Assembly: GCA_903813345.2 (NCBI GenBank)
Contig: CAIIXF020000005.1
Span: 31,127,375-31,191,374, forward strand
DNA: 64,000 nucleotides
From: Owenia fusiformis
Lineage: Eukaryota; Annelida; Polychaeta; Sabellida; Oweniidae
Direction of reading: 5' to 3'
Under the pieces are notes generated by a model. The model saw nothing but the letters and a program-made list of their open reading frames with translations. It made no database searches and was not told the DNA's origin. Made by a program: the position numbers and the translations under genes. This document shows positions 27,260 through 54,000 of the stretch, piece after piece (within the stretch, counting starts at the first letter, position 1; every line of letters starts with the position of its first letter).

Positions 27260-27826
27260 ATGAACAGGCCTACTAGCACACCCTCCAGATCACCAAACTC
27301 TAGACAAAATTGCGTTATTATTGGTTCGTCGATCACAAAACACCTGGATCCAAATCGCTTCTCCTCCAAAATTAATACAGAGAATATAACGGCCTATACA
27401 GTGGAAGAGGCATGGGAGCAAGTGAATAAAATGGCCGACAAGAAAATGCAACCAGATTGCATCGCTTTCCAGCTGCTAACAAACGACGTTAAAAAATATG
27501 AGCCTGAAGTCTGTGTTGAAATGTTCGACGACTTAGTGAGACATACCCTTCAGCTTTTCTGTAGAACCAAAATTATTGTATCGCTTCCCATAAATAGGGG
27601 GGACTACAGGGATCTGAATGATGACATTAACATTATACGCCGTAAACTGGCTCAGTTATATAGTGGTTATAACAACATTATAACAATTAAAAACAACAGC
27701 CTTGCATCAAGAGGCACAATCATACCAAGGTTGTACTCCAGGGACAAGTGCCACCTTTCAGAAGAAGGCGAGCGCTTACTCTTTTCCAACATCAAACGAG
27801 GAATTTTCGACATACTAGAAATATGA
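27260..27826 (+). CDS. LINE ORF1 protein, SGNH/GDSL-like fold, 188 aa
   Basis: The protein shows the two ends of an SGNH-hydrolase fold: a block-I-like CVIIGSSITKHL (about 18-29) and a block-V-like RDKCHLSEEGERLL near the C-terminus. SGNH-type ORF1 proteins occur in several CR1/L2-clade LINEs, where they act as RNA-binding or esterase-like partners of the ORF2 product. The first ATG in frame is at 27260. The open frame extends upstream without another ATG, and a 'GCAGATGCCACC' word is repeated twice in that stretch, so the true start is uncertain. ORF2 follows after 154 bp. Confidence 0.8.
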   Translation: MNRPTSTPSRSPNSRQNCVIIGSSITKHLDPNRFSSKINTENITAYTVEEAWEQVNKMADKKMQPDCIAFQLLTNDVKKYEPEVCVEMFDDLVRHTLQLFCRTKIIVSLPINRGDYRDLNDDINIIRRKLAQLYSGYNNIITIKNNSLASRGTIIPRLYSRDKCHLSEEGERLLFSNIKRGIFDILEI

Positions 27827-27980
27827 TTTTATTCAAATCAAAATCAATATGACTGCCAATGTGTGCAGTGTTTTATATGATAGTGTATGTGAACATTAAC
27901 AGTACTACAGTCCTTTCTCGATTTACTTCAGTGATCATTTATTATATTTGATTCATTTCTTATTGCTTAACAACTTAGAA

Positions 27981-30900
27981 ATGAAGCATGACATTAAAAT
28001 TGGTCATCTGAATATTGAAGGTATTATTAGCAAAAATATTGGTAACAAGCTAAATGATCCATCTTTTTTAAATTATATTAACAACTTAGACATTATTGGG
28101 TTGTCTGAAACCCACACCGATAAAAATAGCAATTTCGAAATAGATGGATTTATTTCTTACCCAGTTCATAGACCAAAAACTAAAAAGGCAAAAAGAAATT
28201 CAGGAGGTGTTATTATATATGTGAAGAATGGCATATGCAAAGGAGTAATACCTCACTATTCAGAGACCAGGGACACGCTTTGGTTACAACTAAAAAGAGA
28301 CTTTTTTGGTTTTGAAAATGATTTGTATTTATGTGTTACCTATATAACACCAATCGATTCATCAGTAACACAAAGATCAGATATTATCAGGTTTGCTGAA
28401 CTAGAAAAGAACATTATCAAATATTCTGAGTTGGGAAATGTCATCATTTTGGGAGATCTAAATTCACGAACAGGGGAGGAACTAGATTTTATTTTGGATG
28501 AAGATGATAACTATGTACCATGTCATTACAACTATTTTCTCGACAATGATAATATTATCAGACGTTTGAGTCAAGATAAGCATGTAAACACTTTTGGGAA
28601 AGAATTATTAAACTTATGCAAAAGCACCCAACTCAGGATACTTAATGGCAGAATTTTTGGCGACCTTACTGGGGCATTAACTTGCCATCAGTGGAATGGT
28701 AGTAGCTTAGTTGACTATGCTTTAGTGCAGCAGGATTTAGTGAACAAAATTAGATATTTCAGAGTTCATGATTTCATGGGGACTATATCAAACCACTGTC
28801 TAATATCCCTAAGTATCAAAGTATCGCTTAATACTCTGTGCACTACTCATTGCAATTATGACACAGAGGTCATACATAAAGAATTACCTTGCACATATAA
28901 GTGGTATAAACAGAATACAGAGAGCTTTAAAAATTCATTACTGAATAATCTGAACCAGGCATTCAACTCAAAAAGTATCAATGAATTAGAAACCGATGAA
29001 GCAACAGAACTATTGACTAACGCTTATAGATTATCGGCAAATGAATGTCTCATTAAACGGAAAATCATGTCAAAAAAACGATTGATTAGAAGAACCACTC
29101 CATGGTTCGATAAGTCATGTAGTCAAATGAAGAAAGAGGTGAATAAACTAGGAAATTTGTTAGCCCGCGATCATAACAATAATGAAAAGAGGCTGAATTA
29201 TTTCAAGCTTAAAAAAATATTTAAAAAGAAGTGTAAGCAGTCAAAGAAAAAAGTTAAAAATAACATTATTAATCAGTTACATATTATGAGTGAAAATGAC
29301 CCTTCAGAATATTGGAAATTAGTTGAGCAACTAAAATCAGTGTCAACAAATACAAGTCAGGCACCAAATACAAATCATATCTCCTCATCCGAGCAATTAC
29401 TTTATTACGAATCACTGCTCAACACAGCAACTACAATAGATAATGACATTGAACAGAAAATCTCTAATCTAAAAAATGAACCTTTTTTTAATGATCTTGA
29501 TTACACCATAAATGATGATGAAATTCTAGGTGCTGTCAAACATTTAAAAAATAAAAAAGCCTGTGGATTAGATGGAATATCAAATGAAATGGTGAAACAC
29601 AGTATTAATCAATCCTTGAAATTCTTAAATAGCATTTTTAACAAGATTCTTAATTGCGGAAAATATCCAAAATCATGGAATGAAGGTTACATATCGTCCA
29701 TTCTAAAATCTGGTAAACCTTCAGATATGAGTAACTATAGAGGAATAACCATCAATAATTGCTTAGGTAAAGTGTTTAACACTATCCTTAATAATAGAAT
29801 TAAATCATTTCTACTCAAAAATAATATATCTAGTAAGTATCAAATTGGCTTCAAGGAAAAAGCGCGTACATCTGATCACATGTTTGTGTTTCGAACATTA
29901 ATCGATAAACACTTATCAAACAACTCTAAAGAGCATCTCTATGCTTGTTTCATTGATTTTCAAAAAGCGTTTGACTCGATTTGGCACAGGGGACTAATAT
30001 TCAAGCTTTTAAACTCAGGAATTCGTGGTAAAACATTAAAAATCATTGAAAACATGTATGATAATAATAAATTTTGCATCAAAAACAATGACCTCGGGAA
30101 GAGAACTGTATTCAAAGTAGCAAATATTGGTGTAAAACAAGGTGATCCATTGTCCCCCTGTCTTTTCAATTTATTCCTAAATGACTTACCCGATACTATT
30201 GGCTATAAAAATGACTGTCCATCTATTGGAAAAGAAATTATTAACATGCTTATGTACGCTGATGATATTGTTTTATTCTCGACTTCTAAACATGGATTAC
30301 AAAGATCTTTAGATTCCTTAAAAGAATATTGTGACAGGTGGAAACTTAATATCAACATAAATAAGACCAAGATAATTAAATTCCAAAAAAACGGGCATCT
30401 CTGCACTGACTATTTCTCATACGGTAGACTCCAAGTTCAATGTGTACAAGAATACAAGTACCTTGGTGTGATATTTCGAGCATCAGGCAGCTTTATATCA
30501 GCTCAAACACACCTACATGAAAAAGCTAGCAAGGCAATTTTTAAACTTAAAAGATGCCTTCAACAGAGTGATATAAAACCACAGCTTGGGCTTAAACTGT
30601 TTGATCAAATGATAAAACCAATTTGTCTATATGGGGCTGAAATATGGGCCCCTTTCAGTCTTTACAAAGTATCCAGTTCAAACCTAGAAGAAGCATACTT
30701 AAACCAAAACAAATTCCCCTCAGAAAAATTAAACATATCCTTTTCCAAATTCCTACTTGGAGTTGGTAGAAAGGCCACTAATATGGCTGTTTATGGGGAA
30801 CTTGGAAGATATCCACTATTTATAGGTATATTTGGCCAAATTCTCAACTTTTTACATCACATTAAAGATACAAAAAATGTTCTAATCAAGGCAGCTTTTG

Positions 30901-31490
30901 ACTGCTCCAAAGAACTACAAGAAAACTCATGGGTTTCAAACGTAAACAAAATAATTTGCTCTATTAATGAAAATTGCTCTGAATCTGTGGATTCTACAAT
31001 TGATACCTTAAGATGTACATCATTACTTAAACTAAAATTTGACAGGTACTGGAAGAATAAATTAAACACTGACACTAGGAAAAATGATAACGGCAATAAA
31101 CTACGAACCTACAGAACCCTCAAGAAAGATTTTAAATATGAACATTATTTAAATATAATCGACAGACTTGATATGCGAAGAAACTTTACACGTTTGAGAA
31201 TAAGTGCTCACAACCTCCAAATTGAGCAAGGGAGATATACAAAACCAAAGAAAACCCCAATTGAAGAAAGACTGTGTGTCCATTGCAATATTATTGATGA
31301 TGAAGAACATTTTATGATGAAGTGTAAAAAATATCAAAATGAAAGATTATTACTTCAAACTGAATTATCTGATACGGCAAAAGCACAAACAAATCAATTT
31401 ATATACCTCTTAACTTGTATAAATCAAGATTGCATCAAGGTTGCAAAATATATTAGTGATGCCTTCCGAATTTTAGAAAGCAATACTTAA
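27981..31490 (+). CDS. LINE ORF2: APE-type endonuclease and reverse transcriptase, 1169 aa
   Basis: The N-terminal apurinic-type endonuclease has GHLNIEG, GLSETHT, ILGDLNSR (Asp about 159), SLVDYAL and a closing SNHCLISL, the expected metal and catalytic blocks in order. The reverse transcriptase has KKACGLDGISNEMVK, SNYRGITI, FIDFQKAFDSIWH, GVKQGDPLSPCLFNLF, the catalytic YADD (about 759-762) and YKYLGVIF. A C-terminal C-X2-C-X8-H-X4-C motif (CVHCNIIDDEEHFMMKC) is typical of LINE ORF2. The start is the ATG at 27981; the open frame begins 33 nt upstream at a TTG. There are no stops or frameshifts across 3.5 kb, suggesting recent activity or strong youth. Confidence 0.92.
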   Translation: MKHDIKIGHLNIEGIISKNIGNKLNDPSFLNYINNLDIIGLSETHTDKNSNFEIDGFISYPVHRPKTKKAKRNSGGVIIYVKNGICKGVIPHYSETRDTLWLQLKRDFFGFENDLYLCVTYITPIDSSVTQRSDIIRFAELEKNIIKYSELGNVIILGDLNSRTGEELDFILDEDDNYVPCHYNYFLDNDNIIRRLSQDKHVNTFGKELLNLCKSTQLRILNGRIFGDLTGALTCHQWNGSSLVDYALVQQDLVNKIRYFRVHDFMGTISNHCLISLSIKVSLNTLCTTHCNYDTEVIHKELPCTYKWYKQNTESFKNSLLNNLNQAFNSKSINELETDEATELLTNAYRLSANECLIKRKIMSKKRLIRRTTPWFDKSCSQMKKEVNKLGNLLARDHNNNEKRLNYFKLKKIFKKKCKQSKKKVKNNIINQLHIMSENDPSEYWKLVEQLKSVSTNTSQAPNTNHISSSEQLLYYESLLNTATTIDNDIEQKISNLKNEPFFNDLDYTINDDEILGAVKHLKNKKACGLDGISNEMVKHSINQSLKFLNSIFNKILNCGKYPKSWNEGYISSILKSGKPSDMSNYRGITINNCLGKVFNTILNNRIKSFLLKNNISSKYQIGFKEKARTSDHMFVFRTLIDKHLSNNSKEHLYACFIDFQKAFDSIWHRGLIFKLLNSGIRGKTLKIIENMYDNNKFCIKNNDLGKRTVFKVANIGVKQGDPLSPCLFNLFLNDLPDTIGYKNDCPSIGKEIINMLMYADDIVLFSTSKHGLQRSLDSLKEYCDRWKLNININKTKIIKFQKNGHLCTDYFSYGRLQVQCVQEYKYLGVIFRASGSFISAQTHLHEKASKAIFKLKRCLQQSDIKPQLGLKLFDQMIKPICLYGAEIWAPFSLYKVSSSNLEEAYLNQNKFPSEKLNISFSKFLLGVGRKATNMAVYGELGRYPLFIGIFGQILNFLHHIKDTKNVLIKAAFDCSKELQENSWVSNVNKIICSINENCSESVDSTIDTLRCTSLLKLKFDRYWKNKLNTDTRKNDNGNKLRTYRTLKKDFKYEHYLNIIDRLDMRRNFTRLRISAHNLQIEQGRYTKPKKTPIEERLCVHCNIIDDEEHFMMKCKKYQNERLLLQTELSDTAKAQTNQFIYLLTCINQDCIKVAKYISDAFRILESNT

Positions 31491-35544: not shown

Positions 35545-35550
35545 TTTATT
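35545..35550 (-). terminator. Polyadenylation signal AATAAA of the STRA8/MEIOSIN-like gene
   Basis: On the minus strand AATAAA lies 24 nt beyond the TAA stop (35577-35575). This supports 35575-35794 being the last exon. Confidence 0.6.
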
Positions 35551-35574: not shown

Positions 35575-38500
35575 TTATAATTTACCTTCTTCCTTCTCTA
35601 GTAGTGGTAGATAGGGATCTTTGAGGTTATTAGAAACATGTTGGTCTCCTAGGGACTGGTGAGCCCTCTCTCTGTACATGTCTCGTTCATTCTCAGACAT
35701 GGAGCCCCAGATTTCAGATAACGTGACAGTGACGTTTGTCAGCCCTGTGGCGCCATCTATGTCTGCCACCATGTCTTTGTAAAATTGCAGATATCTGGAA
35801 TGAGGAATCACAGCAAATGACTTCGCCAAGATTTTACCTATGAGACATACATAACTAACAAACATATGGAATTATATATAGGGAATCATAAATATTTTAC
35901 AATGGGAACAGAATTCAAATTTAGCTTTAACAGGTCCATATTTGAAATAGAGACACATTATCCTTGTCATACAAAATATGGCAAAAGCCATTGTTACTGT
36001 AGAAATCATGACAGAAATTATGATCAGAGAACTGTAGGACTGCAGTATTACTACTATAGTAATTTATTTTAGTAATTTTGAGAAATACAACAGGCTTGTA
36101 TATACCCATCAAAATCTTGGCAACTTTGATCAGAGGAAGGAGACACTCTATCAGGTTCTATTTCTCCATCTTGCGTTATTTGGTCATACAGCCTACAAAA
36201 TAATCAATCCCCATTGTGAACTTGAATTTCAAATTATTTTCTAATCACTAGTTGGATTTGAAATTGCTTCTTGTTTTATATGAATTATTGCATTTTATAT
36301 TTTCTTTGCAAGTCAATGCCAATCCTAAACACGCATTCTCAAAGCAAATAAAAATAGTCAATAGAGATATTTCGCAACTCACTTATAGCATGTTTATTGT
36401 AAGTGAGTTGCAAAATATAATATATCACCATAAGATGACTTATTCTGGTAAGAGATCATATATTGCTGATGTGCCAAGAGTTCCTCTATGACTGAGTTTT
36501 AAATATCTAACTAATATAGAATCAAGCTTATTTTTACCAGCATCTATTCTATAAATGAGTGTATGCATTCTGAAATTACTTACTGGTCCAGCCTCCTACG
36601 ACATCTAGGTGAGGGGGAGAGGGAGATCGGTGCCACATTGTCATATACATTGAACTGCCTGGAACAATAAACATATAATTGTAATGCTATGTCATTCATA
36701 ATATTATGATGTCTCACTTACACTACCAAAATAGGGAGGGAAGGTGCAAACTTATGGGTTTGCATCACTGCTAGAGAAGCGAGCCCCTAAAGAGGGGTAG
36801 GGTTCATCCCTCAAAATTTTTCAAAATTTACATTGTATATGGTGCATTCTAACCATTTCTAACTATAATTTGTTAATGTTTTTTCACCCTCCTGGCTAAG
36901 CCAACGACATTATCCATTTTCGTTCCAATGAATCTCTGTTAGTGAAGTATGATATATATATCTTAACTTGTTATATGCCATAGGTAGGTTTAAAGGGAAG
37001 CAATCAGTTAGATTTAATATGATTCATGGCATTAATTTCTGAAATTTTCTGAATGGACACAAAAATACATGTCTACAACATACCTATAAATACCCTTTTT
37101 TTAACTAATTGGCAACTTTTAAGAACTTGCAAGTTCAAAAGTACTTCAAAAGTGAACATATCAAGGGGTTTCAGAATTGTCTCCGCTGTATGAATTCAAT
37201 CTGATTCTAATAGACAAGAACCATACCTCTCTGGGTTGCAGTTCTCCTTCTTGCTCATGGCATCATTGCTAAACTCTGAGCTGTATAGATGGCGCCTGAC
37301 ACGTTTCCTCCCACTGGGTCTTGCTGTGCTAGTTCGTGGGGTCTGCTCTAGGCTCCTGGCAGTGAAATACATGGATAAGGTTTTATTTCATTTCTTTATA
37401 TAATAATTCACATTCTTAACAATTTTTATTAAAACTTCGTCTTCAATTGTTTTTTTTCTTCAAGCATCTCAAATAAAACTGAATTTGCAAAAGTAAGCAT
37501 GCATGCTTAGTAAAACAGCCATAAATATCAACACATATCTGTAATACAACCTGACGTAAAAAAGCTATCACAAATATGAGACCAGGCATTAACATGCAAA
37601 ATGTCACCACCTACCATTTGTTACATATACTGATCACCAACTACAGAACATCTTAGACAAAAAGTTGGATGCTATAACAATGTCACCACTGATGGTGACA
37701 ATAAAGTGAATTGCCGCATTAGCATTAGTCTACATGTTTAAGTTCAAGAAAAGGAGAAGGGAAATAAACATGAAAACTTGGTGCAAAGAAATGACTTCAG
37801 GGCTCTCGGTAGGCGTTTAGACTGTGGCGCAGCACCACACTCTATTTAGCCGCCACCACAACCTATAGGCAAATCATGATTGTTCCCACACTTTAAACTC
37901 GACTAAATTCACAATAATAGCATGTAAAAAGGATAAAATATGACATAGCGATGATTTATAAAGATTGAACGGTTATGCTGAATATATTTGCACCACACCC
38001 TAAATATATCCTGGTGAGAGCTCGGACTTTCTTCCTGACTTACTTGTCCCAGTCTTCCAAATCATCAAGAGATTCTGTACACAACAAGAGATCTTCAACC
38101 TGGAAAGGATTTACACATATCTTCGATATAATTCATTTTTTGCACTGGACACATTAGACATTGACCTTAATATGTTTTCCATTAATGTGGGACAATTGAA
38201 GTTAGATTGACCAGTCAGTGGTGCTCCATTGAATAGAAACTCAATTCTACATCTTGTGTTTTTCAAAGAAACTCTTTTGAACTATTGCCCCGAACTGAAG
38301 AAATCATACATGTATATCATTTCATTTACTATGTATTTATGTGTTTTTTAAACTGAAAAACTTAAGTGATATTCAATGGAAATAGTTTGCACAGAAATTC
38401 TAAGTATGGTAGAACTGTCTGTAAATGCAATATTTCCAGAAGCCTACAGGCTACAAGTGGAATACCTATAAAATGGAACACTGTTTTAGGGTACCCGAGA

Positions 38501-41500
38501 CATTCAAATTTCACAAGCTTTACTGTATACATGTATTAACTAATTTCCATCAGTTCAAAAATTGATTTTGTTCTTACTTGGTTTGATGCTGCTTGGGATG
38601 GTGTGGAATGGTTTAGTTGTACATCATTAACTGCTTTCGTTGGTGTTAACACATGAGACAGTTTTACAGGCGAGGGCCCCGAGACAGGTTGACTAGACAC
38701 CTACAATATTGAATAGGTAGTACTTAAAGGGGATCAACCTCTAACAAATTTCCCTAAATAAACAAGTCACAGACGTGAACAATATCGTACCTAAAACACA
38801 GCATTGTGGTCTTGTTGACCAAGAAAGCAAGATGGCCGCAGAAAAGTTAATCAGCACTAGAACTTATCACTGTGTAACATATGTAAAAATTTGAACGGTT
38901 TGGCTGGAAACCTGTAGACAAGCCTCGATAGACAAGATTTTAGGATGGAAAATCTAAAATGGCAGCCTTAACATTTACCCAGAATGCCCAAAAACTAATC
39001 AGTTCTTGATGTTGATATGTAGAAACATCCCTGAAAATATCAGATGAATCCCTCAAATGGTTTGGCTGAAAATCTGTAGACAAGTCTTGAAAGTGAAGAT
39101 TTTAGGACAGAAAATCCAAAATGGCCACCTTAAAATTTAACCAGAATGCCCAAAAACTAATCAGTTCTTGAAGTTGATATGTAGAAACATCCCTGAAAAT
39201 TTCAGATGAATCCCTCAAAAGGTTTGGCTGGAAACCTGTAGACAAGTCTTGAAAATAACGATTTTAGGACGGAAAATCCAAAATGGCAGCCTTAACATTT
39301 ACCCAGAATGCCCAAAAACTAATCAGTTCTTGACGTTGATATGTAGAAACATCCCTGAAAATTTCACATGAATCCCTAAAATGGTTTGACTGGAAACCTG
39401 TAGACAAGCTGAAAAGTGAGACGCTGCCCGCCCGCCTGCCCGCCCGTCACCCGTCAAGCTGACTACAATATCGTACCTCTTGTTAGGTACGATAAAAAGT
39501 GTACATGTACTATATGATACAAATCTTCTTTTCTAGAAGTACCAATTGCTTGCAAAATTATGTGACCAACCTACCATTCTAGAAATGGTACCCTATATCG
39601 TGACATATATCTCTGGATTGGTTCTATTAATTTCTAGGTTTCATATTTGCAGTTGCAAGTTAAGACTTATATCAAATTGATTTAAGTTCCCTTGTGCCTT
39701 TTGTATATAGTTTTCATGTTTAGCAAATCAAAATTTTGGGTGTTTTTATTCATTTAGGTTTTCTCTAAAAGCAAAACACTTGTATATTCATTTAGAAATT
39801 ACTCCCGTATTGAATACATGCACATTTTGAAGTATGCCATCTTCAGGTTTAACTTCTCCTATTCTGAACTAGATTTGAACTGTTGATATCACATACCCTG
39901 AAATGTAACCCTGGTTTATCATTGCCTGTTAGTACACACGTCACAATTGGGGACTTGCTTGCGCTTGCTTCTTTCAGTCGGGTGTTGAATAAACTGGTTG
40001 GCTTAGGTGGTCTGCCCTTTACAGCTGGCCTCACATTGTAGGTTATTGTCTGAGTGGGTTGTGGAAGTGGAGGACAGGGGGGCCTGCTACGTTTCTCTTG
40101 GACCACCTTAAAACATTGACAACTTTGAAATAATCAAATTAGACAACAGCAACGCCAAAGCATAGCAAATCCCATCGAACAGCCATGGCTGACATTTTTA
40201 CAAAGTATATAGCAAAAATGGCAGCCATTTTACAAAATGACAGTGTGCCATGCTTACAGTATTCACATACAAAATATGAACAAAACTGCTCCACTACTTT
40301 TCAAGTTATAGTAAAATATGTTACAATGGTGGCCATTTTGAAAAATGGCCACCTTCTACCAAAAGTGTCATTAGACAGTGTGCCATGTTTATAGCATTCA
40401 CATACCAAATATGAACAAAATCACTCCACTACTTTTTGAGTTACAGCAAAAATCGTAAAGTAGTAAAGGCCGCCATTTTTCAAGATGGCTACCATGTGTT
40501 TCTTTTCTACATTTCTAGCTTTATTAATGTCCTATATAATTTTTTTACATTTAAAACATATTGCTATTACAGTTTTACATATTGTATCTAAATTACTGTA
40601 AAATCAGCACTAAAATGGCCGCCATTTTTAAATGAGCGGCCATTTTGAAAATTGGCTTTAGAGCAGAACTTCTAGTCCCATAGGGTATTGTACAAAATAT
40701 GAACAAAATTGGGCCAACGGTATTTGAGTAAATGCCCGGATGGACGGACGGTACAGAGGGATGGACGGACAGACAAAGGCGTTCCCTATATCTGAACTTT
40801 GTTTGATGGGATAATAAAGCATGAGACTGTATGGAAGTGCACTGAACTTACTAGAATTACTCTTAGATATAGTGTAGTCCTGAGATTATTTTTAGCTGAG
40901 TGAAGCATTTGTTTATTCCAAGCAAGTATTTGTTTTTGTCCTCTCAGATTTCTTTACTTATCAATGCACTTTCACTAGGAGATGATTTTAAGGTATAACA
41001 AAAAGGATTCTGAATTTACCTTTGTTTTAAAAGAATAACCACTTGATTTGTTGACATTTTTAGCAAGTTGAGATTTCCTCCTAGTGGCAACCTTGTTTAG
41101 TCTCTCATTGATCCCCTGTCTGTGTTTGGCTGTTAATTGTTTCTTCCCTGCAGAAAGTGGGGAATCCAGAGTTATATCTGGCTTCAAGATTCTTCTGGTG
41201 TATGGCCTCCTACAAAAGTAACCTAAATTGCAGAATGCGTGCATACAATTCAGGCCCTTACCCAGCTTTTGCCAAGGGGGTTCACTTTTCAAAAAATCTG
41301 AGGAGGGGGGGTTCACATTTGACAACTTAGGCCCAAAATCACTTGAAAAGTGCTCAGGATGGTGAACAATTGCTTGATCTTGAAAGAATTATGACTCAAA
41401 CCCCCTCTCTTCTGGCTACAGGCCTGCAATAGACTAGGTGTGAGTAGAAATAATCTTGATTTACATCATTAAATATTCAAAATTCAGTCATACTGATGTC

Positions 41501-43789
41501 ATATTTGAAATCTACGTGTAAAAGTACTTCTAGAAATATGGTTGTTTATCAACTTTGAAAATTAAATTTGTTTTGAAAATGTGACTTCTAGTTCGGGTTG
41601 ATTCCCCATAGACCCCATGTTACAAAATCACAAAAAGTGAAATAGCTTTTCTTGTATTGGACAGATAACATTTTCCTTTACTGGACATATATTAATTTTC
41701 ATAACTTTTAGATAAATAAGGGTTATATGAAAATTGAACCACTAAAACAGATCTAATTTATGTTAAAGGGAACTTTCTACTATACCCGCCATGTTATCTG
41801 ACCCGAACAAGTCACCTGGTGGTGAAATTGGTAACTTCCTACTCGCATCTATGTTATTATTCAGCAATTTATCAAAACCATAAATGATAAATTTCAGTTT
41901 ATTCAATTCATGTACGTAATTTCTGAATTCTAATTCTGAAAGGTTTGAGACTTGGTCAAAATGTCCCTTTTATTATCTAGACTTACTTTGGGATGTATTT
42001 GGAGTTTTCTTCTATGAATCTGGCTTTAACAGCAGTCAAGGAATCTTCAGGTGGAATCTTTTTCAATCCCAAAACTTTCGCTGAAAGGGATTCAAAACAT
42101 TCTGATATTAATCACATCTTTCTGTTTCACTTAAAACATACCTCAAATCTGGGCTCTCTTGGATCACCAAATCTAACACCCAAGTCACATTTGTCGTACA
42201 GAGGCCGTGCGTCGACCGCAGATCAATTAAATCAGTGAATTTCTTCGGCGAGCGTAGAAAAACTACATACGGCGTATCCAAATTTTTACAGGCCGCAGGG
42301 TAGCCGTAGAAATTATAATTCAGAGTTATAATATTTGTTCAGTTCTGCGGCCCTCGTAGAAATCAAAAGGCCATTGCTAGACTGCAAAAAGGTCCAACTG
42401 TGGCCACACGTCGGGTTTGCCCTTGACTTGCACTTGCTGTAGGGTTTGATGGGTGATGTACCTTTGGAAACAGTTTTTATGTCAGTTTTCTTTCATTTAC
42501 AATATAATACAATACGTGTACTGTTTGATGTAAAGTAACTGATTCCACAGCAACTTATATTTCACTTGCACTTTTTATTTGATACTAAATTATATCCTAA
42601 CACTACAAACGACGTTTATAAATTGCACTGAGGTAGATAAAATAAAAGGAAGAATTAATGTTTAATCAACAGCAAATCAAAAACTCTCTGTGCGGCTGCC
42701 ATAGGAAATGACTGCAAAAGTATCCGACCACAGAAATTCCACAGCGAGCGTAGAAATGTTACTGACCGCAGAAATGATAGACCGCACAGTCGACGTAGGA
42801 AATGTGAGTGGAGTGTAAAGCACAATATGATGTAATCTCATGGCTGAGGAAAAAAGAAATTATATGGATTATCATGATGGATCATTCAAAAGATTTATTT
42901 ATGTACTGTATATGCAATTCGAAAAGGAGTGATGTGGGACACAAAATGATGGACATATAATCTAGTCATTATTGCCACTTTGACTAACATTTTGAGAGAA
43001 GAACAGAATAATTTTATTTATGGATGTATTTTATTTGAAAAGCTTACAAACCTTTTTCACAGAGTAGACTCTCCAGCAGATCTTCTAAGAAATTTCTATG
43101 GTTTTCAGTTTCTTGAAGAATCAGTGCCTGAAAAATTCATATGTAAATTTAAATTAATATTTGAAGGATATCATTTTGAATAAAGATTTATCAGGTAATC
43201 CAATTTTCAAAATGTCTGCATTGCATTGTAATGACATAATATAAATGCAAAAATAAGATGTTAGACAGTTAAACCATTCATTGTTAAAGCAAGTCAAAAT
43301 AATCAGATACTAGAATTCCGTAATTCTGCGTCGTTGCAGAAAAACCACAGAATTTTGGCTTTCAAAATTTTTGCAGAATTTGATTGAATTCCCTGCAATT
43401 TTGTGAAAGTTCAGATGAAGCCGCTGCTTGCAGAATTTATCGCAAAATTCGGGATTTCATGCAGAATTTGCATTTTTCTCATGCAGAAAACTAGGATGTG
43501 TGAATAATCTCTGAAATAATCCCATCCTCTTATCGCATCCTACGACCCCTTTAGATTGTGCAATCTAAAGTGGTCGGTAGGATACGATAACCATCCTCCA
43601 TGTTACTTGTGACAATGAAATTCTCATCTTTAAAATATCAGAAAAACTCACTTTTGACACCTTCTTCCTCACAGGTGTCTTATTCATCAGTACAATATTC
43701 TTCAGGCTATTGTAGCAGTTTGCTATATTTGCGCGCCATTTCGCATCTGACTCACGTCGTCTCTGTTTCACTGCTGCAGAACTCGACAT
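35575..43789 (-). CDS. STRA8/MEIOSIN-like meiotic-entry factor (bHLH-like + HMG-like), 11 coding exons, 465 aa
   Basis: Exons (minus) are 43789-43652, 43127-43052, 42080-41987, 41209-41020, 40106-39897, 38700-38578, 38099-38044, 37355-37227, 36658-36584, 36192-36106 and 35794-35575. All have GT/AG borders and phases closing to 1398 nt. Residues about 8-66 form a bHLH-like unit: basic KQRRRESDAKWR, helix 1 NIANCYNSLKNIVL, helix 2 SKALILQETENHRNFLEDLL. The next segment (PPEDSLTAVKARFIEENS) parallels vertebrate STRA8 after its helix 2. The middle is Pro/Ser/Lys-rich. Residues about 394-445 form an HMG-like unit (YLQFYKDMVADI...VTLSEIWGSMSENERDMY), close to STRA8's 'RYLNFYK...ISHLWQTLSEEKK' as remembered. 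STRA8 and MEIOSIN (BHMG1) act as a dimer that switches on meiotic genes. The last-exon acceptor was placed at 35795 because the one at 35839 breaks frame. Orthology to one or the other is undecided. Confidence 0.82.
38785..39495. repeat. About 161-bp minisatellite-like repeats in intron 5 of the STRA8-like gene
   Basis: Three and a half units contain 'TTTACCCAGAATGCCCAAAA', 'ATGTAGAAACATCCCTGAAA' and 'GGTTTGGCTGGAAACCTGTA' (near 38955, 39117 and 39279). The block is bounded by 'AATATCGTACCT' words at 38789 and 39467. Confidence 0.8.
40185..40800. repeat. Dispersed 'AAAATGGCCGCCATTTTG' repeat in intron 4
   Basis: Several self-complementary 'GCCATTTTGAAAATGGC' type words and about 2-3 degenerate units ('CAGTGTGCCATG...TTCACATACAAAATATGAAC') end in a GGACGGACGG purine-rich tail (about 40739-40775). 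The frame at 40185-40394 is part of this repeat. Confidence 0.6.
41251..41428. mobile_element. About 178-bp MITE, 'CAGGCCYGTAGCCAG' family
   Basis: The left end CAGGCCCTTACCCAGCTTTT and right end CTTCTGGCTACAGGCCTG are inverted. A related copy lies at about 57288-57453. It sits in intron 3 of the STRA8-like gene, just upstream of exon 4. Confidence 0.65.
42190..42830. repeat. 'CCGTAGAAAT / CCGCAGAAAT' rich segment in intron 2
   Basis: Short words such as GCGTAGAAA, CCGTAGAAATT, CTCGTAGAAATC, CCGCAGAAATG and CGTAGGAAATG recur at both ends (about 42195-42380 and 42700-42805), partly inverted. This suggests the termini of a diverged transposon of about 0.6 kb. The boundaries are not resolved. 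Confidence 0.4.
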
Positions 43790-45479
43790 GATAGACAAGA
43801 TGTAATAACTGAACTTCTGAAATATAAATTCACATACCTGGGTTTCAAAAATACACGATTTTTAGAGATCTATATGTGTATATTGAACATTATTTTGCCT
43901 ATTTCATTTCAATTTAATCATGAATAAAAAATCAAATCAAAATTTCAAAAAATTAAAAATACCAAAATGTGTCTTGCTTTTTTGCTTACTGTTTATTCCC
44001 GATCTTTCCAAGGTGACATCCAATACTTCTACCTTTAAGAAAATAGCAGGTAACTTCTAAATTGAATAAATATTGTATTCCATTTCATGTATTAAAAATA
44101 CAAGATGACAAAAATGATAAGGTTAAATTTAAATGCAAAAAATGGCGCCACACGAACTTATCCAAATGTCAAACTTGAAATACAAACGAAACAATTTTAT
44201 TTTAAATTAAAAAGTAACTTTTTAGTCAAGAAAAAACAGTGGAAAAACAACTAATATTTATCATATCCAGGCTGTAGGAATCAATAATTTTCTTCATTGG
44301 CTCTCAATAAATAGGGCATTATTTTCTGATTCCGGTGTTATTGCTGCACTTTTTTTCAGTGGGGGGGGGGGGAGAAGTGAGAATACAACCAATTTTTGAA
44401 CTGATGAGGAACAATAGAAAAATAATTTATGAACCTTATCAAATCATGAGAAGTATGATTAAAAAAAAACTGTCACTTTGAATTTACGTTTCCAAGGTTA
44501 ACATTGCCGGTATAGAAGAAATGATGATATGGGTATTATTTACTTGTAAGGATATGGTATTTACTGATGAAGATAAACATGTACACTGGTTTGTACAGTG
44601 ATGGTGGTGGGGATACTGTATATGCGCTGATTATGATACACACTGGTACATACTGATAAAGATACACACTGGTCACTGGTGAGAATGACACTACAATCTG
44701 ACAACTGACTAAAACATTTTATATAGCATTGTATTAAATAACAATCTTGTGGTACATAATTTTAAATGCAGCATAAAATTCAAACATTTTGCTGAAAGGC
44801 TAAAAATGAACATCCTGAGTTATTCATATTATCAATATTCATACCAATGGATCAGACCATTGTATTGTAACGAATTTTTCATTTTTCAAAATTTTATTTT
44901 TGGAGTCCAGTGCCGTTTTTTAGCACTTTAGACAGTTTTGACAGTAGGAAAGTGTTTCCCAGTCACAGTTGACAGCTTATATAGTTATATTTATGAATAG
45001 AACACTTTAGGTGTACTGGGAATAGTGTAAACTACTCTTTTCTGGGAGATTTATTTTGCTTGCGTTCTTGTGCATTTTCTCACCTCCTATTAGAGAGCTC
45101 TGTTGACCTACATTCAATAACTCGTTTTTCCTTGCAATTTCGCCATAATTGGAGCCAATGATGATTGGTTTTTGTTATATTTATCTAGTTTATATCTTAA
45201 TCTAGCTAGTTAATTAGAAGATATATGTTTGTTCTGTGTTAAAAAACGGAGATCGTGATTGTTAGGTGAAGCTAATTTTCTGCAAAAGTTATGTCATCAT
45301 TGCATCATATTAATTAATTATGCACTAGTGATATCCTGCCTGGGATTCCAGTGACTGGCCAGGTATTGCATCAGCCGCTCGTGAGCTATGATTGGTTAGG
45401 CAGATAGTTTCGTGTGCAAAACACATGTTACATACATGTTGGGGTATAAATACAGTGGCGGACGTGACTCGGGGGCTTT

Positions 45480-47600
45480 CGGCGCATTGACTTTTGACGA
45501 ACGGGACTATGTGGCTCGGGTTTATGGAATCTTTGGAACTATGAAACTTTTTCGTTTTTGCTAACTGCAAAACTTAGATGATTCTTGGAACTACAAAACT
45601 TAGGAAGTTTTCTGCTAACTGAAGGATGGCATGGGATGATTGACTTGCCTAATTGAACTTCATTAGCCTGAGGTAGTAACCATAGATGATTATAAGCCAC
45701 TGGTGTTGGATTCTAGGTGAATTAACTGGCTTATTGAGGGAAGTTATTGAACTACAAAACTTAGGAAGTTTTCTGCTGACTATTAGCCCGAGTGAACAGT
45801 CATATATGATTATAAGCCACTGATGTTGGAATCTAGATGGGGGCTTCTGACACTCTGACTTTTGACGAACGGGACTATGTGGCTCTGATATACGGGAGTT
45901 TTGGAACTACAAAACTTTGTCGTTTTTGCTAACTGCAAAACTTAGATGATTCTTGGAACTACAAAACTTAGGAAGTTTTCTGCTAACTGAAGGATGGCAT
46001 GGGATGATTGACTTGCCTAATTGAACTTCATTAGCCTGAGGTAGTAACCATAGATGATTATAAGCCACTGGTGTTGGATTCTAGGTGAATTAACTGGCTT
46101 ATTGAGGGAAGTTATTGAACTACAAAACTTAGGAAGTTTTCTGCTGACTATTAGCCCGAGTGAACAGTCATATATGATTATAAGCCACTGATGTTGGAAT
46201 CTAGATGGGGGCTTCTGACACTCTGACTTTTGACGAACGGGACTATGTGGCTCTGATATACGGGAGTTTTGGAACTACAAAACTTTGTCGTTTTTGCTAA
46301 CTGCAAAACTTAGATGATTCTTGGAACTACAAAACTTAGGAAGTTTTTCTGCTAACTGAAGGATGGCATGGGATGATTGACTTGCCTAATTGAACTTCAT
46401 TAGCCTGAGGTAGTAGCCATTGATGATTATAAGCCACTGGTGTTTGATTCTAGGCGAATTAACTGGCTTATTGAGGGAAGCAATTGGAACTACAAAACTT
46501 AGGAAGTTTTCTGGAACTACAAAACTTAGGAAGTTTTTCGCTGACTATTAGCCCGATAGTCCTAGATGATTATAAGCCACTGGTGTTTGATTCTAGGCGA
46601 ATTAACTGGCTTATTGAGGGAAGCAATTGGAACTACAAAACTTAGGAAGTTTTCTGGAACTACAAAACTTAGGAAGTTTTTCGCTGACTATTAGCCCGAT
46701 AGTCCTAGATGATTATAAGCCACTGATGTTGGAGCAGATAACACATTGACTTTTGACGAACGGGACTATGTGGCTCTGATTTACGGGATTTTTGGAACTA
46801 CAAAACTTAGGCAGTTTTCTGGAACTATAAAACTTTGTCATTTTTGCTATCTGCAAAACTTAGTCGTTTTCTGCTATCTGAAGAACATAGTCGATCTGCT
46901 ACATGGGATGACTGACCATTGACTATTGACTTCACTTAGCCTGATGAAGTAGCCATTGATGATTATAAGCCATTGATGTGACAACCTGGATGAATTTATT
47001 GGCTTATTAGAGGAATTTTTGGAACTACAAAACTTTGTCATTTTTGCTAACTGCAAAACTTAGCTGATATTTTGGATCTACAAAACTTAGAAGTTTTCTG
47101 CTATCTGAAGAACTTAGTCGATCTGCTACATGGGATGACTGACCATTGACTATTGACTCTTGACTTCTCTTAGCCTGATGAAGTAGCCATTGATGATTAT
47201 AAGCCATTGATGTGACAACCTGGATGAATTTATTGGCTTATTAGAGGAATTTTTGGAACTACAAAACTTAGTCGTTTTTGCTAACTGCAAAACTTAGCTG
47301 ATATTTTGGATCTACAAAACTTAGAAGTTTTCTGCTATCTGAAGAACATAGTCGATCTGCTACATGGGATGACTGACCATTGACTATTGACTATTGACTT
47401 CTCTTAGCCTGATGAAGTAGCCATTGATGATTATAAGCCATTGATGTGACAACCTGGATGAATATATTGGCTTATTAGAGGCATTTTTGGAACTACAAAA
47501 CTTAGTCGTTTTTGCTAACTGCAAGACTTAGCTGATATTTTGGATCTACAAAACTTAGAAGTTTTCTGCTATCTGAAGAACTTAGTCGATTTGCTGCGTG
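45480..47600 (+). repeat. Complex tandem repeats inside the LTR built on 'GGAACTACAAAACTTAG'
   Basis: Block A has about 367-bp units (for example GGAACTACAAAACTTTGTCG at about 45904 and 46271). Block B has about 130-bp units near 46440-46740. Block C has about 230-bp units (TGGGATGACTGACCATTGAC near 46902, 47131 and 47366). All share the short core GGAACTACAAAACTTAGGAA/GTTTTCTGCTA and the tag GATGATTATAAGCCA. The identical blocks occur in the 3' LTR at +6176. Confidence 0.88.
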
Positions 47601-47898: not shown

Positions 47899-48134
47899 AA
47901 TTCTACTTTGAACTATTATTGTACCAGAGAGTGATCGTATATAATTAACAACAACAAGTTTATTTGGACATTTCAAATTTGTTTGTAATAATTAAGGTTA
48001 TAATATATGTGAAATAAATCTATATTGTTTGTCGTGTTGTAATTGCTGTATAACACAAGTACATTTAACGTGTACCAGGAAATCCCAAAGTAACCTAGCC
48101 CTCACACTACCATAAATCGGCTAGTTTGTTACAC

Positions 48135-48151
48135 TGGTGGCAGTGGTGGGA
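48135..48151 (+). other. Probable primer-binding site
   Basis: The sequence immediately after the LTR, TGGTGGCAGTGGTGGGA, begins with the TGG expected to pair with a tRNA CCA end. I do not assign the tRNA. Confidence 0.5.
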
Positions 48152-48188
48152 TATTGTGATTGCAGACTTCGTGATACAACATAACAAT

Positions 48189-50738
48189 ATGGAACAAATG
48201 CAGGATCTTCCACCTCGAGTGTCAATGAAACGTAGGGAAGATAGTGAGCTAGAGAAAACAGTTTTTCTGAAGACTGATAAAATGGAGATAAACAACCCAA
48301 GAGGGGGTGATGATACTTTGCCGGTACCGAGAAAGAATATTGCACGCACAGAGTCTCCTGGATCCCAATTTAAGACTAGAAAATCGGGCACAAGAGAAAT
48401 GGATTTGCCAAGCCTTTGGAGTACAGGATATTGGAGTGGAAAAGTGTTGGATAACACTTTCATCAGTAGTGATGAAGGAGACCCTCCAAAAAGGCAGAGA
48501 TTTCCCCTTACCTCGACTACTGACAGACCCTTAGTACGTTTAAAGAACGTAGAGGATACCCTGAGACGAGATTTGAGTATGGTAGAGGAGAACGTTGAGG
48601 AAAAGATGTCCATTTTGAATGAGACTATTGTGGGCCAACAGAGACAAATACAGAAGTTGGCTGAAGCTCAGCAGAGAAGTATGGCCCAAGTGGTGGAGAC
48701 TCAACAGAGTATGATACTGGGACAAAGGGAGTTACAACAGATGATGATGGGGACCATAAATAAAGTTGCAGAGCAGTTTAGGGAAAACTTGAATCATCAG
48801 GAGATGAAGACACGAGAAATAAGGAACCAAATGGAGGGTTTACAGAAGACCATTGTTGATTCAATTATAGAGGAATTGCATGACAGTTTAATGGTCAACA
48901 CCTCTGAAGTAAATGTTAAACCCCAAACAAATCAATCGAGAAAAGTTTCAAGGCAGCCAGGAGACCAAACAGTAGATCCTGTCAAAGATTGCTCAGATAC
49001 GACATCACCTAGTGGCCGGATCACCAGAGACCAGAGTGTTATCAATTTACAGGAGCACCAGGATAGTGAACAGAAGTTGAGTCCTCCTGAAGATGATTAT
49101 TTGCCAGAGGAACAAAGACACTCCAGATTACAAGAAAGTGAAAGCCACCCGGAAACTAAGTTATCTCTTGAGTTGGTTAAAATGTGCAACAGTCTCTGTG
49201 AAAGACTGTCCTCGGATAACAGGGAGAAGTCGAAAATTCGGATTAAGCCTGATACTTATGATGGCACCACCCCTTGGCAGGATTATAGGGCTTATTTTGA
49301 TATCTGTGGAGATTTAAACCATTGGTCAGAAGCAGACAAAGGGAATTTTTTAGCCACGAGCCTGAGAGGCCAAGCACAAGAAATGGTTCTAGAAATGGGA
49401 CAGAACTATACTTATGACCAACTCCTCTTGGCACTTGAAAAGAGATTTGGTCCAGGTGGCAAGGCCGAAGTTTATGAGGCAGAGTTAGTCAGCAGGATTC
49501 GTAAGCCTAAGGAAAATCTGCAGACCCTGGGCCAGGATATAAGAAGGCTCACTGCACTGGCTTATCCAGAGATGAGTCGTACTGCTCAGGATCGACTTGC
49601 CCGACGAAGTTTTGAACAGTCCATATTAGAGGAGGATATACGAAGGGCAATACATTCAAAGGAATGTAATACCTTGGACCAAGCCATTGAAGTAGCCCTT
49701 AAGGAAGAATCCTATCTGGAATCTGAAAAGATAAGGAAGGGACAAAAACCAAAATGTAGTCGGGTGATGGCTATTGAGGAAAGGGACGAGGATGAAAATA
49801 AATTAATAGCCCTGGAGAATAAGATCGAAACTCTGATGGAGAAAATGACGGAATTAGTGTCCAAACAGAACAAGCCTGAGCCTGAGATGTCAAGGCCAGC
49901 TTTCAAAAGAATAGAATGTTTTTACTGCCACAAGCCTGGACATAAAATAGCCGAGTGCTTCTCTAGAAAACATGCTGAAGAGCGGGCTAAGGAAGCCCAA
50001 GACAGCTCCAGCCAGGTAGCCACAGTTGAGTTTCTATCCCATCAGGGTAAAGATGTCAAGGCTTCCAAACACACCAATAAGATAGTGGCTCATGGAACAG
50101 TCTGCAACACAGATGTTGCGTTTCTAGTTGATTCAGGAGCAGCTAGTACCATAATAAACTCGGAGGTCTACCGAAAGATGCATGAACTTATAAGGCCAAA
50201 ACTTGAGCCATCGAATAGAGTTATTATACAAGCTGGTGGAGAACCATTGAGTCAAAAAGGTGTTACCTGTGTTGGAATAAACATTGGTGGCCATGTCGAG
50301 AACTTAAAAGTAGTAGTGGCAGATATTGAATTCGATGGCATCTTAGGTACTGATTACCTTGCTGCTTCAAGAGCCATATTAGACTATGGTCAGTGTAAGA
50401 TGACCATGAGATCAGGAAGTTCTAGTGATGCTGAGGTACGTGTTGGAGACACATACAAAAGAACATCTCGGAGAGTGACTATGGATGTAGTAAGTAGTCA
50501 TCCAGTCCGAGATAAGAGATATAGCCAGAGAGTTAGACTGAGTGAATCTTCTGGAAACATGAGAGGTGTGGGACAGGATAGTCCAGGCCTGTCCAGTACT
50601 CGTCCCAGTAAGGTCCCACTAGCAAAAGTCTATAGATCAAGGTACTCAGGACCCCGACAGAGATGTGACACAGATTATGATTGGAGGAACCATCGTTGTT
50701 TGCCTCCCATAAACACTAATTCGAGAGCACAGCCTTGA
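48189..50738 (+). CDS. Gag-protease polyprotein of the LTR element, 849 aa
   Basis: The start is the first ATG (48189); the open frame reaches back into the LTR end without one. Residues about 115-235 are Gln/Glu-rich and probably coiled-coil. Residues about 360-490 are a retrotransposon Gag capsid-like domain (PWQDYRAYFDICGDLNHW...ALEKRFGP). There is a CCHC zinc knuckle C577-X2-C580-X4-H585-X4-C590, and an aspartic protease with D648-S-G-A and a downstream ILGTDYL (about 718-724). After the protease the frame continues about 115 aa as a basic, low-complexity tail and stops. In autonomous relatives reverse transcriptase would follow here, so an in-frame internal deletion is likely. Confidence 0.92.
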   Translation: MEQMQDLPPRVSMKRREDSELEKTVFLKTDKMEINNPRGGDDTLPVPRKNIARTESPGSQFKTRKSGTREMDLPSLWSTGYWSGKVLDNTFISSDEGDPPKRQRFPLTSTTDRPLVRLKNVEDTLRRDLSMVEENVEEKMSILNETIVGQQRQIQKLAEAQQRSMAQVVETQQSMILGQRELQQMMMGTINKVAEQFRENLNHQEMKTREIRNQMEGLQKTIVDSIIEELHDSLMVNTSEVNVKPQTNQSRKVSRQPGDQTVDPVKDCSDTTSPSGRITRDQSVINLQEHQDSEQKLSPPEDDYLPEEQRHSRLQESESHPETKLSLELVKMCNSLCERLSSDNREKSKIRIKPDTYDGTTPWQDYRAYFDICGDLNHWSEADKGNFLATSLRGQAQEMVLEMGQNYTYDQLLLALEKRFGPGGKAEVYEAELVSRIRKPKENLQTLGQDIRRLTALAYPEMSRTAQDRLARRSFEQSILEEDIRRAIHSKECNTLDQAIEVALKEESYLESEKIRKGQKPKCSRVMAIEERDEDENKLIALENKIETLMEKMTELVSKQNKPEPEMSRPAFKRIECFYCHKPGHKIAECFSRKHAEERAKEAQDSSSQVATVEFLSHQGKDVKASKHTNKIVAHGTVCNTDVAFLVDSGAASTIINSEVYRKMHELIRPKLEPSNRVIIQAGGEPLSQKGVTCVGINIGGHVENLKVVVADIEFDGILGTDYLAASRAILDYGQCKMTMRSGSSSDAEVRVGDTYKRTSRRVTMDVVSSHPVRDKRYSQRVRLSESSGNMRGVGQDSPGLSSTRPSKVPLAKVYRSRYSGPRQRCDTDYDWRNHRCLPPINTNSRAQP

Positions 50739-51041: not shown

Positions 51042-54000
51042 TGTAACGAATTTTTCATTTTTCAAAATTTTATTTTTGGAGTCCAGTGCCGTTTTTTAGC
51101 ACTTTAGACAGTTTTGACAGTAGGAAAGTGTTTCCCAGTCACAGTTGACAGCTTATATAGTTATATTTATGAATAGAACACTTTAGGTGTACTGGGAATA
51201 GTGTAAACTACTCTTTTCTGGGAGATTTATTTTGCTTGCGTTCTTGTGCATTTTCTCACCTCCTATTAGAGAGCTCTGTTGACCTACATTCAATAACTCG
51301 TTTTTCCTTGCAATTTCGCCATAATTGGAGCCAATGATGATTGGTTTTTGTTATATTTATCTAGTTTATATCTTAATCTAGCTAGTTAATTAGAAGATAT
51401 ATGTTTGTTCTGTGTTAAAAAACGGAGATCGTGATTGTTAGGTGAAGCTAATTTTCTGCAAAAGTTATGTCATCATTGCATCATATTAATTAATTATGCA
51501 CTAGTGATATCCTGCCTGGGATTCCAGTGACTGGCCAGGTATTGCATCAGCCGCTCGTGAGCTATGATTGGTTAGGCAGATAGTTTCGTGTGCAAAACAC
51601 ATGTTACATACATGTTGGGGTATAAATACAGTGGCGGACGTGACTCGGGGGCTTTCGGCGCATTGACTTTTGACGAACGGGACTATGTGGCTCGGGTTTA
51701 TGGAATCTTTGGAACTATGAAACTTTTTCGTTTTTGCTAACTGCAAAACTTAGATGATTCTTGGAACTACAAAACTTAGGAAGTTTTCTGCTAACTGAAG
51801 GATGGCATGGGATGATTGACTTGCCTAATTGAACTTCATTAGCCTGAGGTAGTAACCATAGATGATTATAAGCCACTGGTGTTGGATTCTAGGTGAATTA
51901 ACTGGCTTATTGAGGGAAGTTATTGAACTACAAAACTTAGGAAGTTTTCTGCTGACTATTAGCCCGAGTGAACAGTCATATATGATTATAAGCCACTGAT
52001 GTTGGAATCTAGATGGGGGCTTCTGACACTCTGACTTTTGACGAACGGGACTATGTGGCTCTGATATACGGGAGTTTTGGAACTACAAAACTTTGTCGTT
52101 TTTGCTAACTGCAAAACTTAGATGATTCTTGGAACTACAAAACTTAGGAAGTTTTCTGCTAACTGAAGGATGGCATGGGATGATTGACTTGCCTAATTGA
52201 ACTTCATTAGCCTGAGGTAGTAACCATAGATGATTATAAGCCACTGGTGTTGGATTCTAGGTGAATTAACTGGCTTATTGAGGGAAGTTATTGAACTACA
52301 AAACTTAGGAAGTTTTCTGCTGACTATTAGCCCGAGTGAACAGTCATATATGATTATAAGCCACTGATGTTGGAATCTAGATGGGGGCTTCTGACACTCT
52401 GACTTTTGACGAACGGGACTATGTGGCTCTGATATACGGGAGTTTTGGAACTACAAAACTTTGTCGTTTTTGCTAACTGCAAAACTTAGATGATTCTTGG
52501 AACTACAAAACTTAGGAAGTTTTTCTGCTAACTGAAGGATGGCATGGGATGATTGACTTGCCTAATTGAACTTCATTAGCCTGAGGTAGTAGCCATTGAT
52601 GATTATAAGCCACTGGTGTTTGATTCTAGGCGAATTAACTGGCTTATTGAGGGAAGCAATTGGAACTACAAAACTTAGGAAGTTTTCTGGAACTACAAAA
52701 CTTAGGAAGTTTTTCGCTGACTATTAGCCCGATAGTCCTAGATGATTATAAGCCACTGGTGTTTGATTCTAGGCGAATTAACTGGCTTATTGAGGGAAGC
52801 AATTGGAACTACAAAACTTAGGAAGTTTTCTGGAACTACAAAACTTAGGAAGTTTTTCGCTGACTATTAGCCCGATAGTCCTAGATGATTATAAGCCACT
52901 GATGTTGGAGCAGATAACACATTGACTTTTGACGAACGGGACTATGTGGCTCTGATTTACGGGATTTTTGGAACTACAAAACTTAGGCAGTTTTCTGGAA
53001 CTATAAAACTTTGTCATTTTTGCTATCTGCAAAACTTAGTCGTTTTCTGCTATCTGAAGAACATAGTCGATCTGCTACATGGGATGACTGACCATTGACT
53101 ATTGACTTCACTTAGCCTGATGAAGTAGCCATTGATGATTATAAGCCATTGATGTGACAACCTGGATGAATTTATTGGCTTATTAGAGGAATTTTTGGAA
53201 CTACAAAACTTTGTCATTTTTGCTAACTGCAAAACTTAGCTGATATTTTGGATCTACAAAACTTAGAAGTTTTCTGCTATCTGAAGAACTTAGTCGATCT
53301 GCTACATGGGATGACTGACCATTGACTATTGACTCTTGACTTCTCTTAGCCTGATGAAGTAGCCATTGATGATTATAAGCCATTGATGTGACAACCTGGA
53401 TGAATTTATTGGCTTATTAGAGGAATTTTTGGAACTACAAAACTTAGTCGTTTTTGCTAACTGCAAAACTTAGCTGATATTTTGGATCTACAAAACTTAG
53501 AAGTTTTCTGCTATCTGAAGAACATAGTCGATCTGCTACATGGGATGACTGACCATTGACTATTGACTATTGACTTCTCTTAGCCTGATGAAGTAGCCAT
53601 TGATGATTATAAGCCATTGATGTGACAACCTGGATGAATATATTGGCTTATTAGAGGCATTTTTGGAACTACAAAACTTAGTCGTTTTTGCTAACTGCAA
53701 GACTTAGCTGATATTTTGGATCTACAAAACTTAGAAGTTTTCTGCTATCTGAAGAACTTAGTCGATTTGCTGCGTGGGAATCTACAGGACTGGACAGCAC
53801 TTCAAGAGGGTGAAGCTATCCCCAGCATAGAGCTTAAAGAAGTGGTGTCCAGCCTTCATAGATCTAATTCATGGAATTGGATGTTCCTTTCTTCGCCTTG
53901 GTCTTAGTCAGTGTTGTATTCATAGTTACCTGTTTGATTGCGGTTATATGCATCCGTGTGTGTATGAGGACTGAAAGGGACTCTACTAACCAGGAACCTC

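What the first reader, a model, noticed from the sequence alone, without database searches (positions are those of the whole stretch)
35575..43789. Invertebrate STRA8/MEIOSIN-like gene with both bHLH-like and HMG-like ends
An 11-exon hand-spliced gene closes in phase and joins an N-terminal basic helix-loop-helix-like unit to a C-terminal HMG-like unit whose YLQFYK...SEIWGSMSENE pattern parallels vertebrate STRA8. STRA8 and MEIOSIN are the retinoic-acid-linked switch for meiotic entry and are usually discussed as vertebrate factors. One invertebrate protein carrying both domains could represent the ancestor of the pair, or one half of it.
Basis: partly seen in the sequence, partly recalled or inferred. 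Interest (0 to 1): 0.85.

Follow-up and report, generated by a model that had tools for sequence, protein, structure and literature searches.

The report
STRA8-like meiosis-entry gene in an invertebrate
An apparently invertebrate genome carries what looks like a relative of STRA8, the protein that switches mammalian germ cells into meiosis, including a motif like the one STRA8 uses to grip the cell-cycle brake RB, which hints that this switch may be older than vertebrates.

Summary
An 11-exon minus-strand gene (43789-35575) closes in phase through ten GT-AG introns and encodes 465 aa. Pfam finds a helix-loop-helix at the N-end above cut-off, and an HMG box in the last exon (above cut-off only when that exon is scanned alone). 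The bHLH_STRA8 profile matches below cut-off, and one of 20 other bHLHs of the genome scores about as high, so that hit proves nothing.

Three finer features point to STRA8: a non-canonical basic region plus helix 1 closer to STRA8 than in any of 70 bHLH exons tested; HMG helix 1 YLQFYK, as STRA8 YLNFYK; and, in exon 7, LLLCTESLDDL, resembling the RB-binding LxCxE end of STRA8. Here LxCxE precedes the HMG box; in STRA8 it is C-terminal. The STRA8 letters were recalled from memory and only partly validated.

No second bHLH+HMG gene was seen, with a weak search. Retinoic-acid and synteny links were not supported. STRA8 and MEIOSIN each already have both domains, and an amphioxus STRA8 is published, so "ancestor of the pair" is possible but untested. 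Best verdict: a STRA8-family transcription factor outside vertebrates.

The parts
43652..43789 (-). exon 1: start codon, basic region, helix 1
43052..43127 (-). exon 2: helix 2 of the bHLH
41987..42080 (-). exon 3
41020..41209 (-). exon 4
39897..40106 (-). exon 5
38578..38700 (-). exon 6
38044..38099 (-). exon 7, with the LxCxE motif
38073..38087 (-). LLCTE (aa 282-286), LxCxE motif with acidic flank
   Evidence: STRA8 LxCxE from PMC10600341
37227..37355 (-). exon 8
36584..36658 (-). exon 9
36106..36192 (-). exon 10
35575..35794 (-). exon 11: HMG-like unit and stop codon
43688..43765 (-). basic region and helix 1 (aa 9-34) with the STRA8-like signature R..S.A..RA
35656..35793 (-). HMG unit (aa 394-439), helix 1 YLQFYK
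35545..35550 (-). AATAAA after the stop, possible poly(A) signal

Best explanation
This is a STRA8-family gene of an apparently invertebrate animal, seen in one copy. The protein is most likely a germline transcription factor: the non-canonical basic region and the C-terminal HMG unit contact promoters of meiotic and S-phase genes, and the HLH dimerises with itself or with a partner not found here. The LxCxE motif docks on an RB-family protein, so that relief of RB repression and activation of meiotic genes coincide at the pre-meiotic S phase. Shown here: the gene structure, the two Pfam domains, the STRA8-like basic region and HMG helix 1, the LxCxE motif, and an RB-family domain in the genome. 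Inferred: germline expression, DNA binding, dimerisation, RB binding and a role in meiotic entry.
For: HLH and HMG_box_2 over cut-off (HMG for exon 11 alone). Basic region plus helix 1 against recalled mouse STRA8: ungapped score 46, 10 of 26 identical; 0 of 70 bHLH exons reach it (best 26) and 0 of 200,000 shuffles. HMG helix 1: 31, reached by 0 of 30 HMG exons and 8 of 200,000 shuffles. LLLCTESLDDL against recalled LLKCLETFDDL: 36, 0 of 20,000 shuffles of the protein; STRA8 binds RB through its C-terminal LKCLE (PMC10600341, passages). One RB_B place in the genome. The typed STRA8 scores 173.7 bits on bHLH_STRA8 over all 80 profile positions.
Against: bHLH_STRA8 stays under its cut-off (20.6 against 25), and 2 of 20 other bHLHs hit it at 17.6 and 20.1 bits. 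The genome search with bHLH_STRA8 did not list this gene. In gapped alignment one of 20 control bHLHs beats it (84 against 66), and one of 20 HMG controls (56 against 51). HMG helices 2-3 are not specific (11 of 30 controls do as well). The recalled STRA8 C-terminal half finds nothing in the genome, and the recalled bHLH finds only the C11 bHLH. LxCxE lies before the HMG box, not after it. No RNA, no tree with database sequences; the HMG part of the recalled STRA8 is not validated.
Confidence: 0.65

Rival explanations
1. It is an orthologue of MEIOSIN (BHMG1), or a gene from before the split of STRA8 and MEIOSIN, rather than STRA8 proper.
For: The HMG unit is at the C-terminus and aligns about as well with a recalled MEIOSIN HMG fragment (48) as with STRA8 (51), while STRA8 and that MEIOSIN fragment score only 29 with each other (89 of 1,000 shuffles reach it).
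Against: HMG helix 1 and the LxCxE motif look like STRA8. The MEIOSIN similarity is not specific: 11 of 30 HMG exons do as well in helices 2-3. The MEIOSIN fragment is recalled, and no MEIOSIN bHLH was on hand.
Confidence: 0.2
2. It is an unrelated lineage-specific bHLH protein with an HMG-like end, and the resemblance to STRA8 is convergence or chance.
For: Generic HLH scores above bHLH_STRA8; an ordinary bHLH reaches 20.1 bits on that profile; gapped scores are not specific.
Against: Three separate local resemblances, none reached by the controls used. I recall no other animal family with bHLH plus HMG.
Confidence: 0.13
3. The model joins two neighbouring genes, a bHLH gene and an HMG gene.
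For: No transcript evidence; only the two end domains matched Pfam; the codon test did not support the frame.
Against: Ten consecutive GT-AG introns of 311-1,196 bases (from the coordinates) with matching phases and no wide gap; a STRA8-like motif lies in a middle exon in frame.
Confidence: 0.07

Closest known systems
[quoted passage not shown]
   Same: Putative bHLH and HMG domains (PMC9604137, passage), similar basic region and helix 1, YLxFYK in HMG helix 1, an LxCxE motif with acidic flank.
   Different: LxCxE before the HMG unit instead of at the C-terminus; below the cut-off of the family profile; no DR5-like site within 4 kb upstream. The recalled STRA8 HMG unit hits no HMG model, whereas exon 11 does.
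MEIOSIN (BHMG1)
   Same: bHLH and HMG domains (PMC9604137, passage); some similarity in HMG helices 2-3 to a recalled fragment.
   Different: HMG helix 1 and LxCxE are like STRA8; MEIOSIN bHLH not compared.
Amphioxus Stra8 (Branchiostoma floridae gene model)
   Same: A STRA8 orthologue outside vertebrates already in print, by reciprocal best hit (PMC3769385, passage).

Membership tests
STRA8 | bHLH_STRA8 profile (PF23175) over its cut-off | tested here: not met
   20.6 bits for aa 1-105 and 15.7 for the whole protein, cut-off 25; 2 of 20 control bHLHs hit it at 17.6 and 20.1 bits. The profile comes from known STRA8 and may not reach distant members (inference).
STRA8 | STRA8-type non-canonical basic region and helix 1 | tested here: met
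   Ungapped score 46 against recalled mouse STRA8; 0 of 70 bHLH exons reach it, best 26; 0 of 200,000 shuffles.
STRA8 | HMG-like unit with YLxFYK helix 1 | tested here: met
   Helix 1 score 31, 0 of 30 HMG controls; HMG_box_2 over cut-off for exon 11 alone. The STRA8 letters for this unit are recalled and unvalidated; helices 2-3 are not specific.
STRA8 | LxCxE motif at the C-terminus that binds RB | tested here: inconclusive
   Motif present with a matching flank but before the HMG unit, not at the C-terminus; binding not testable.
STRA8 | Reciprocal best match with vertebrate STRA8 | tested here: inconclusive
   Recalled bHLH finds only a C11 bHLH (E 0.175) and the C-terminal half finds nothing; the search is exon by exon and this bHLH is split. 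No vertebrate protein set on hand.
STRA8 | Retinoic-acid control and expression at meiotic entry | not testable with these tools
   No expression data. No DR5-like site within 4 kb upstream of the ATG; one exact DR5 match in intron 5.
MEIOSIN | Specific similarity to MEIOSIN bHLH and HMG | tested here: inconclusive
   HMG fragment score 48, but 11 of 30 ordinary HMG exons do as well in helices 2-3; no MEIOSIN bHLH to compare.

The most novel reading that the evidence does not exclude
The gene is of the undivided STRA8/MEIOSIN ancestor type: one protein that homodimerises, recognises meiotic promoters and lifts RB repression by itself, with the RB coupling older than the split of protostomes and deuterostomes and independent of retinoic acid.
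Probability: 0.22. Interest if true: 0.85.

Novelty: new member of a known kind. Interest (0 to 1): 0.57.

Why it matters
STRA8 and MEIOSIN start meiosis in mammals, yet stra8 has been lost in several fish groups (PMC4870732, passages), so the age and first task of the module are open. A STRA8-type gene with an RB-type motif outside chordates (if the animal is, as I suspect, an annelid) would date the module and its link to the cell cycle to early bilaterians, and make it testable in an animal where retinoic acid may not control meiosis.

Tried and rejected
Profile evidence alone: the bHLH_STRA8 hit was rejected as proof after the control, since 2 of 20 other bHLHs hit it. The genome search with that profile listed two places, both below cut-off, with stops inside, and not this gene. 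Gapped Smith-Waterman scores are not specific either.

Second bHLH+HMG gene: among 82 HLH, 57 HMG_box and 32 HMG_box_2 places listed the nearest HLH-HMG pair on one contig is 153 kb apart, and on one strand 190 kb. This is weak: this gene's own bHLH, split by an intron, is not in the HLH list, and the tool's counts are lower bounds. The full model found no paralogue at E<=10. A recalled MEIOSIN HMG fragment found six HMG places, all of which are also in the HMG_box list.

Promoter motifs: DR5-like sites with up to one mismatch, 8 in the window (expected 4.3; 8 of 100 shuffles reach 8), none within 4 kb upstream of the ATG (nearest 4.1 kb), one exact match in intron 5 and one inexact in intron 8. 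CNCCTCAG 3 (expected 2.9), none upstream of the ATG, one in intron 3. E2F-like TTTSSCGC 2 (expected 1.8), neither near the gene.

Synteny: Nup192/205 matches lie on C11 and symplekin matches on C8, not C5; that these are vertebrate neighbours of STRA8 and MEIOSIN is recalled.

Structure: exon 11 folded without an alignment gave mean pLDDT 59; its first three helices are in HMG order. Foldseek gave two matches at E<=10, neither an HMG protein, none at E<=0.001. Inconclusive.

Codon usage did not support the frame. PDB sequence search of the whole model: none at E<=10. Inverted repeats in 42080-43130: none.

Literature: nine of ten searches of the open-licence library concerned STRA8, MEIOSIN or BHMG1. 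In their listings, and in the passages that I opened, I saw no STRA8 or MEIOSIN gene described outside chordates; most listed papers were not opened. Subscription journals, preprints and gene databases were not searched, so automatic annotations may exist.
Full report
What is there. The window lies on contig C5 of a 498-Mb genome of 525 contigs. C1-C12 measure 31.9-62.2 Mb and together hold 95.8% of the bases; C13 is 0.66 Mb. This fits the annelid Owenia fusiformis as I recall it (about 500 Mb, 12 chromosomes), but the species is not confirmed: a paper search for it returned nothing, and the passages seen in two annelid papers gave no chromosome number.

Gene model. On the minus strand, 11 exons from 43789 to 35575 join in phase through ten GT-AG introns to 465 codons; by their coordinates the introns are 311-1,196 bases long. 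A search of the genome with the model protein at E<=10 returns 11 places, its own exons. Splicing exon 1 to exon 2 raises the HLH score from 15.3 to 24.9 bits; reading on into the intron gives 17.6. A possible donor sits three codons before the stop, and an AATAAA starts 25 bases after it, so the last residues are uncertain.

Domains. Pfam reports HLH at 21.8 bits (cut-off 20.7) for aa 18-54, and HMG_box_2 at 19.7 bits in the whole protein or 23.4 bits for exon 11 alone (cut-off 22.4). bHLH_STRA8 appears at 15.7 bits in the whole protein and 20.6 for aa 1-105, under its cut-off of 25. As a control I scanned 20 of the 82 bHLH places listed: two also hit bHLH_STRA8, at 17.6 and 20.1 bits, though with HLH scores of 72.5 and 71.8. 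By itself the profile hit therefore does not make this a STRA8.

STRA8-specific tests. The HMG part of my recollection is not validated and hits no HMG model. (a) Basic region plus helix 1, 26 residues without gaps: score 46, 10 identical. Of 70 bHLH exons fetched (12 of the 82, which match only the second half of the profile, were left out), none reaches this in any frame or at any offset; the best is 26. None of 200,000 shuffles does. The pattern R..S.A..RA, chosen after seeing the alignment, occurs in 0 of the 70. (b) HMG helix 1, FDGYLQFYKDMVADI against FERYLNFYKQTMDLL: 31, reached by 0 of 30 HMG exons fetched (of 57 places) and by 8 of 200,000 shuffles. Helices 2-3 are not specific: the model scores 13 and 11 of 30 controls do as well or better. 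(c) Exon 7, LLLCTESLDDL against LLKCLETFDDL: 36, reached by 0 of 20,000 shuffles of the protein, and the best among 3,196 open stretches of the window; against the recalled human C-end the score is 31, reached by 8 of 20,000. The bare pattern L.C.E arises in 929 of 20,000 shuffles, so the flank carries the weight. Most of that flank is recalled; the paper passage gives only LKCLE.

Results against. Gapped alignment of the whole bHLH with STRA8 gives 66, while one of 20 controls (the C11 exon, L016) gives 84; for the HMG unit the model has 51 and one of 20 controls (L045) has 56. A genome search with the recalled STRA8 C-terminal half returned nothing; the recalled bHLH returned only the C11 exon, at E 0.175; the bHLH_STRA8 family search did not list this gene. 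These genome searches work exon by exon and the bHLH here is split. In mouse STRA8 the LxCxE is at the C-terminus; here it precedes the HMG unit.

What it probably does. STRA8 binds promoters at a CNCCTCAG motif that differs from the usual bHLH site (PMC6392498, passages), acts with MEIOSIN (PMC10909893, passage), and binds RB through LxCxE, which is needed for timely meiotic entry in females (PMC10600341, abstract start and passages). The present protein has parts for the same work: a departing basic region, an HLH, an HMG unit and an LxCxE motif; the genome has an RB_B place. Expression in germ cells, dimerisation, DNA binding and RB binding are inferred. No DR5-like site or CNCCTCAG lies in the 4 kb upstream of the ATG, so retinoic-acid control and self-binding are unsupported; one exact DR5 match in intron 5 and one CNCCTCAG in intron 3 are at the chance level for the window.

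Relation to what is known. STRA8 and MEIOSIN are both described as having bHLH and HMG domains (PMC9604137, passages), so their joint presence does not mark an ancestor of the pair. A Stra8 orthologue was reported in amphioxus and in elephant shark (PMC3769385, passage); stra8 was lost in Acanthomorpha and in Cypriniformes (PMC4870732, passages). In the listings, and in the passages of the papers opened, I saw no such gene described outside chordates; most listed papers were not opened, and gene databases were not available.

Second member. No paralogue at E<=10. Among the listed HLH and HMG places the nearest pair on one contig is 153 kb apart, and on one strand 190 kb. The check is blind to bHLH domains split by introns, as this one is. 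Recalled vertebrate neighbours lie on other chromosomes.

Verdict. Membership rests on three local features and is not certified by the family profile. Whether it is STRA8 proper, MEIOSIN or the undivided ancestor needs a tree with real sequences.

Noticed in passing
window 14462-14584 (+) and 15534-15692 (+): A second HMG-box exon in the window (HMG_box 35.8 bits), with a weak zinc-finger-like piece (21.1 bits, below cut-off) about 1 kb further on the same strand. No HLH place was listed near it.
   Followed up: partly
window 54487-55089 (-): Open frame of 201 codons matching 5-formyltetrahydrofolate cyclo-ligase over the whole profile (186 bits).
   Followed up: partly
window 27900-31487 (+): Open frame of 1,196 codons with endonuclease and reverse transcriptase matches, a LINE-like element; another open frame (27170-27823) precedes it and was not scanned.
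   Followed up: partly
window 45328-46274, 48099-50735 and 51504-52450: An open frame with aspartyl-protease matches lies between two stretches whose open frames are identical, as in an LTR element.
   Followed up: no
window about 43304-43385 (intron 1): A repeat of about 80 bases with at least 39 other places in the genome at 78-90% identity.
   Followed up: no
window 38940-39446 (intron 5): Three successive units of about 162 bases with similar open frames on the minus strand.
   Followed up: no
window 61833-62081 (+): Exon-like stretch matching a protein-tyrosine phosphatase (61.2 bits).
   Followed up: no
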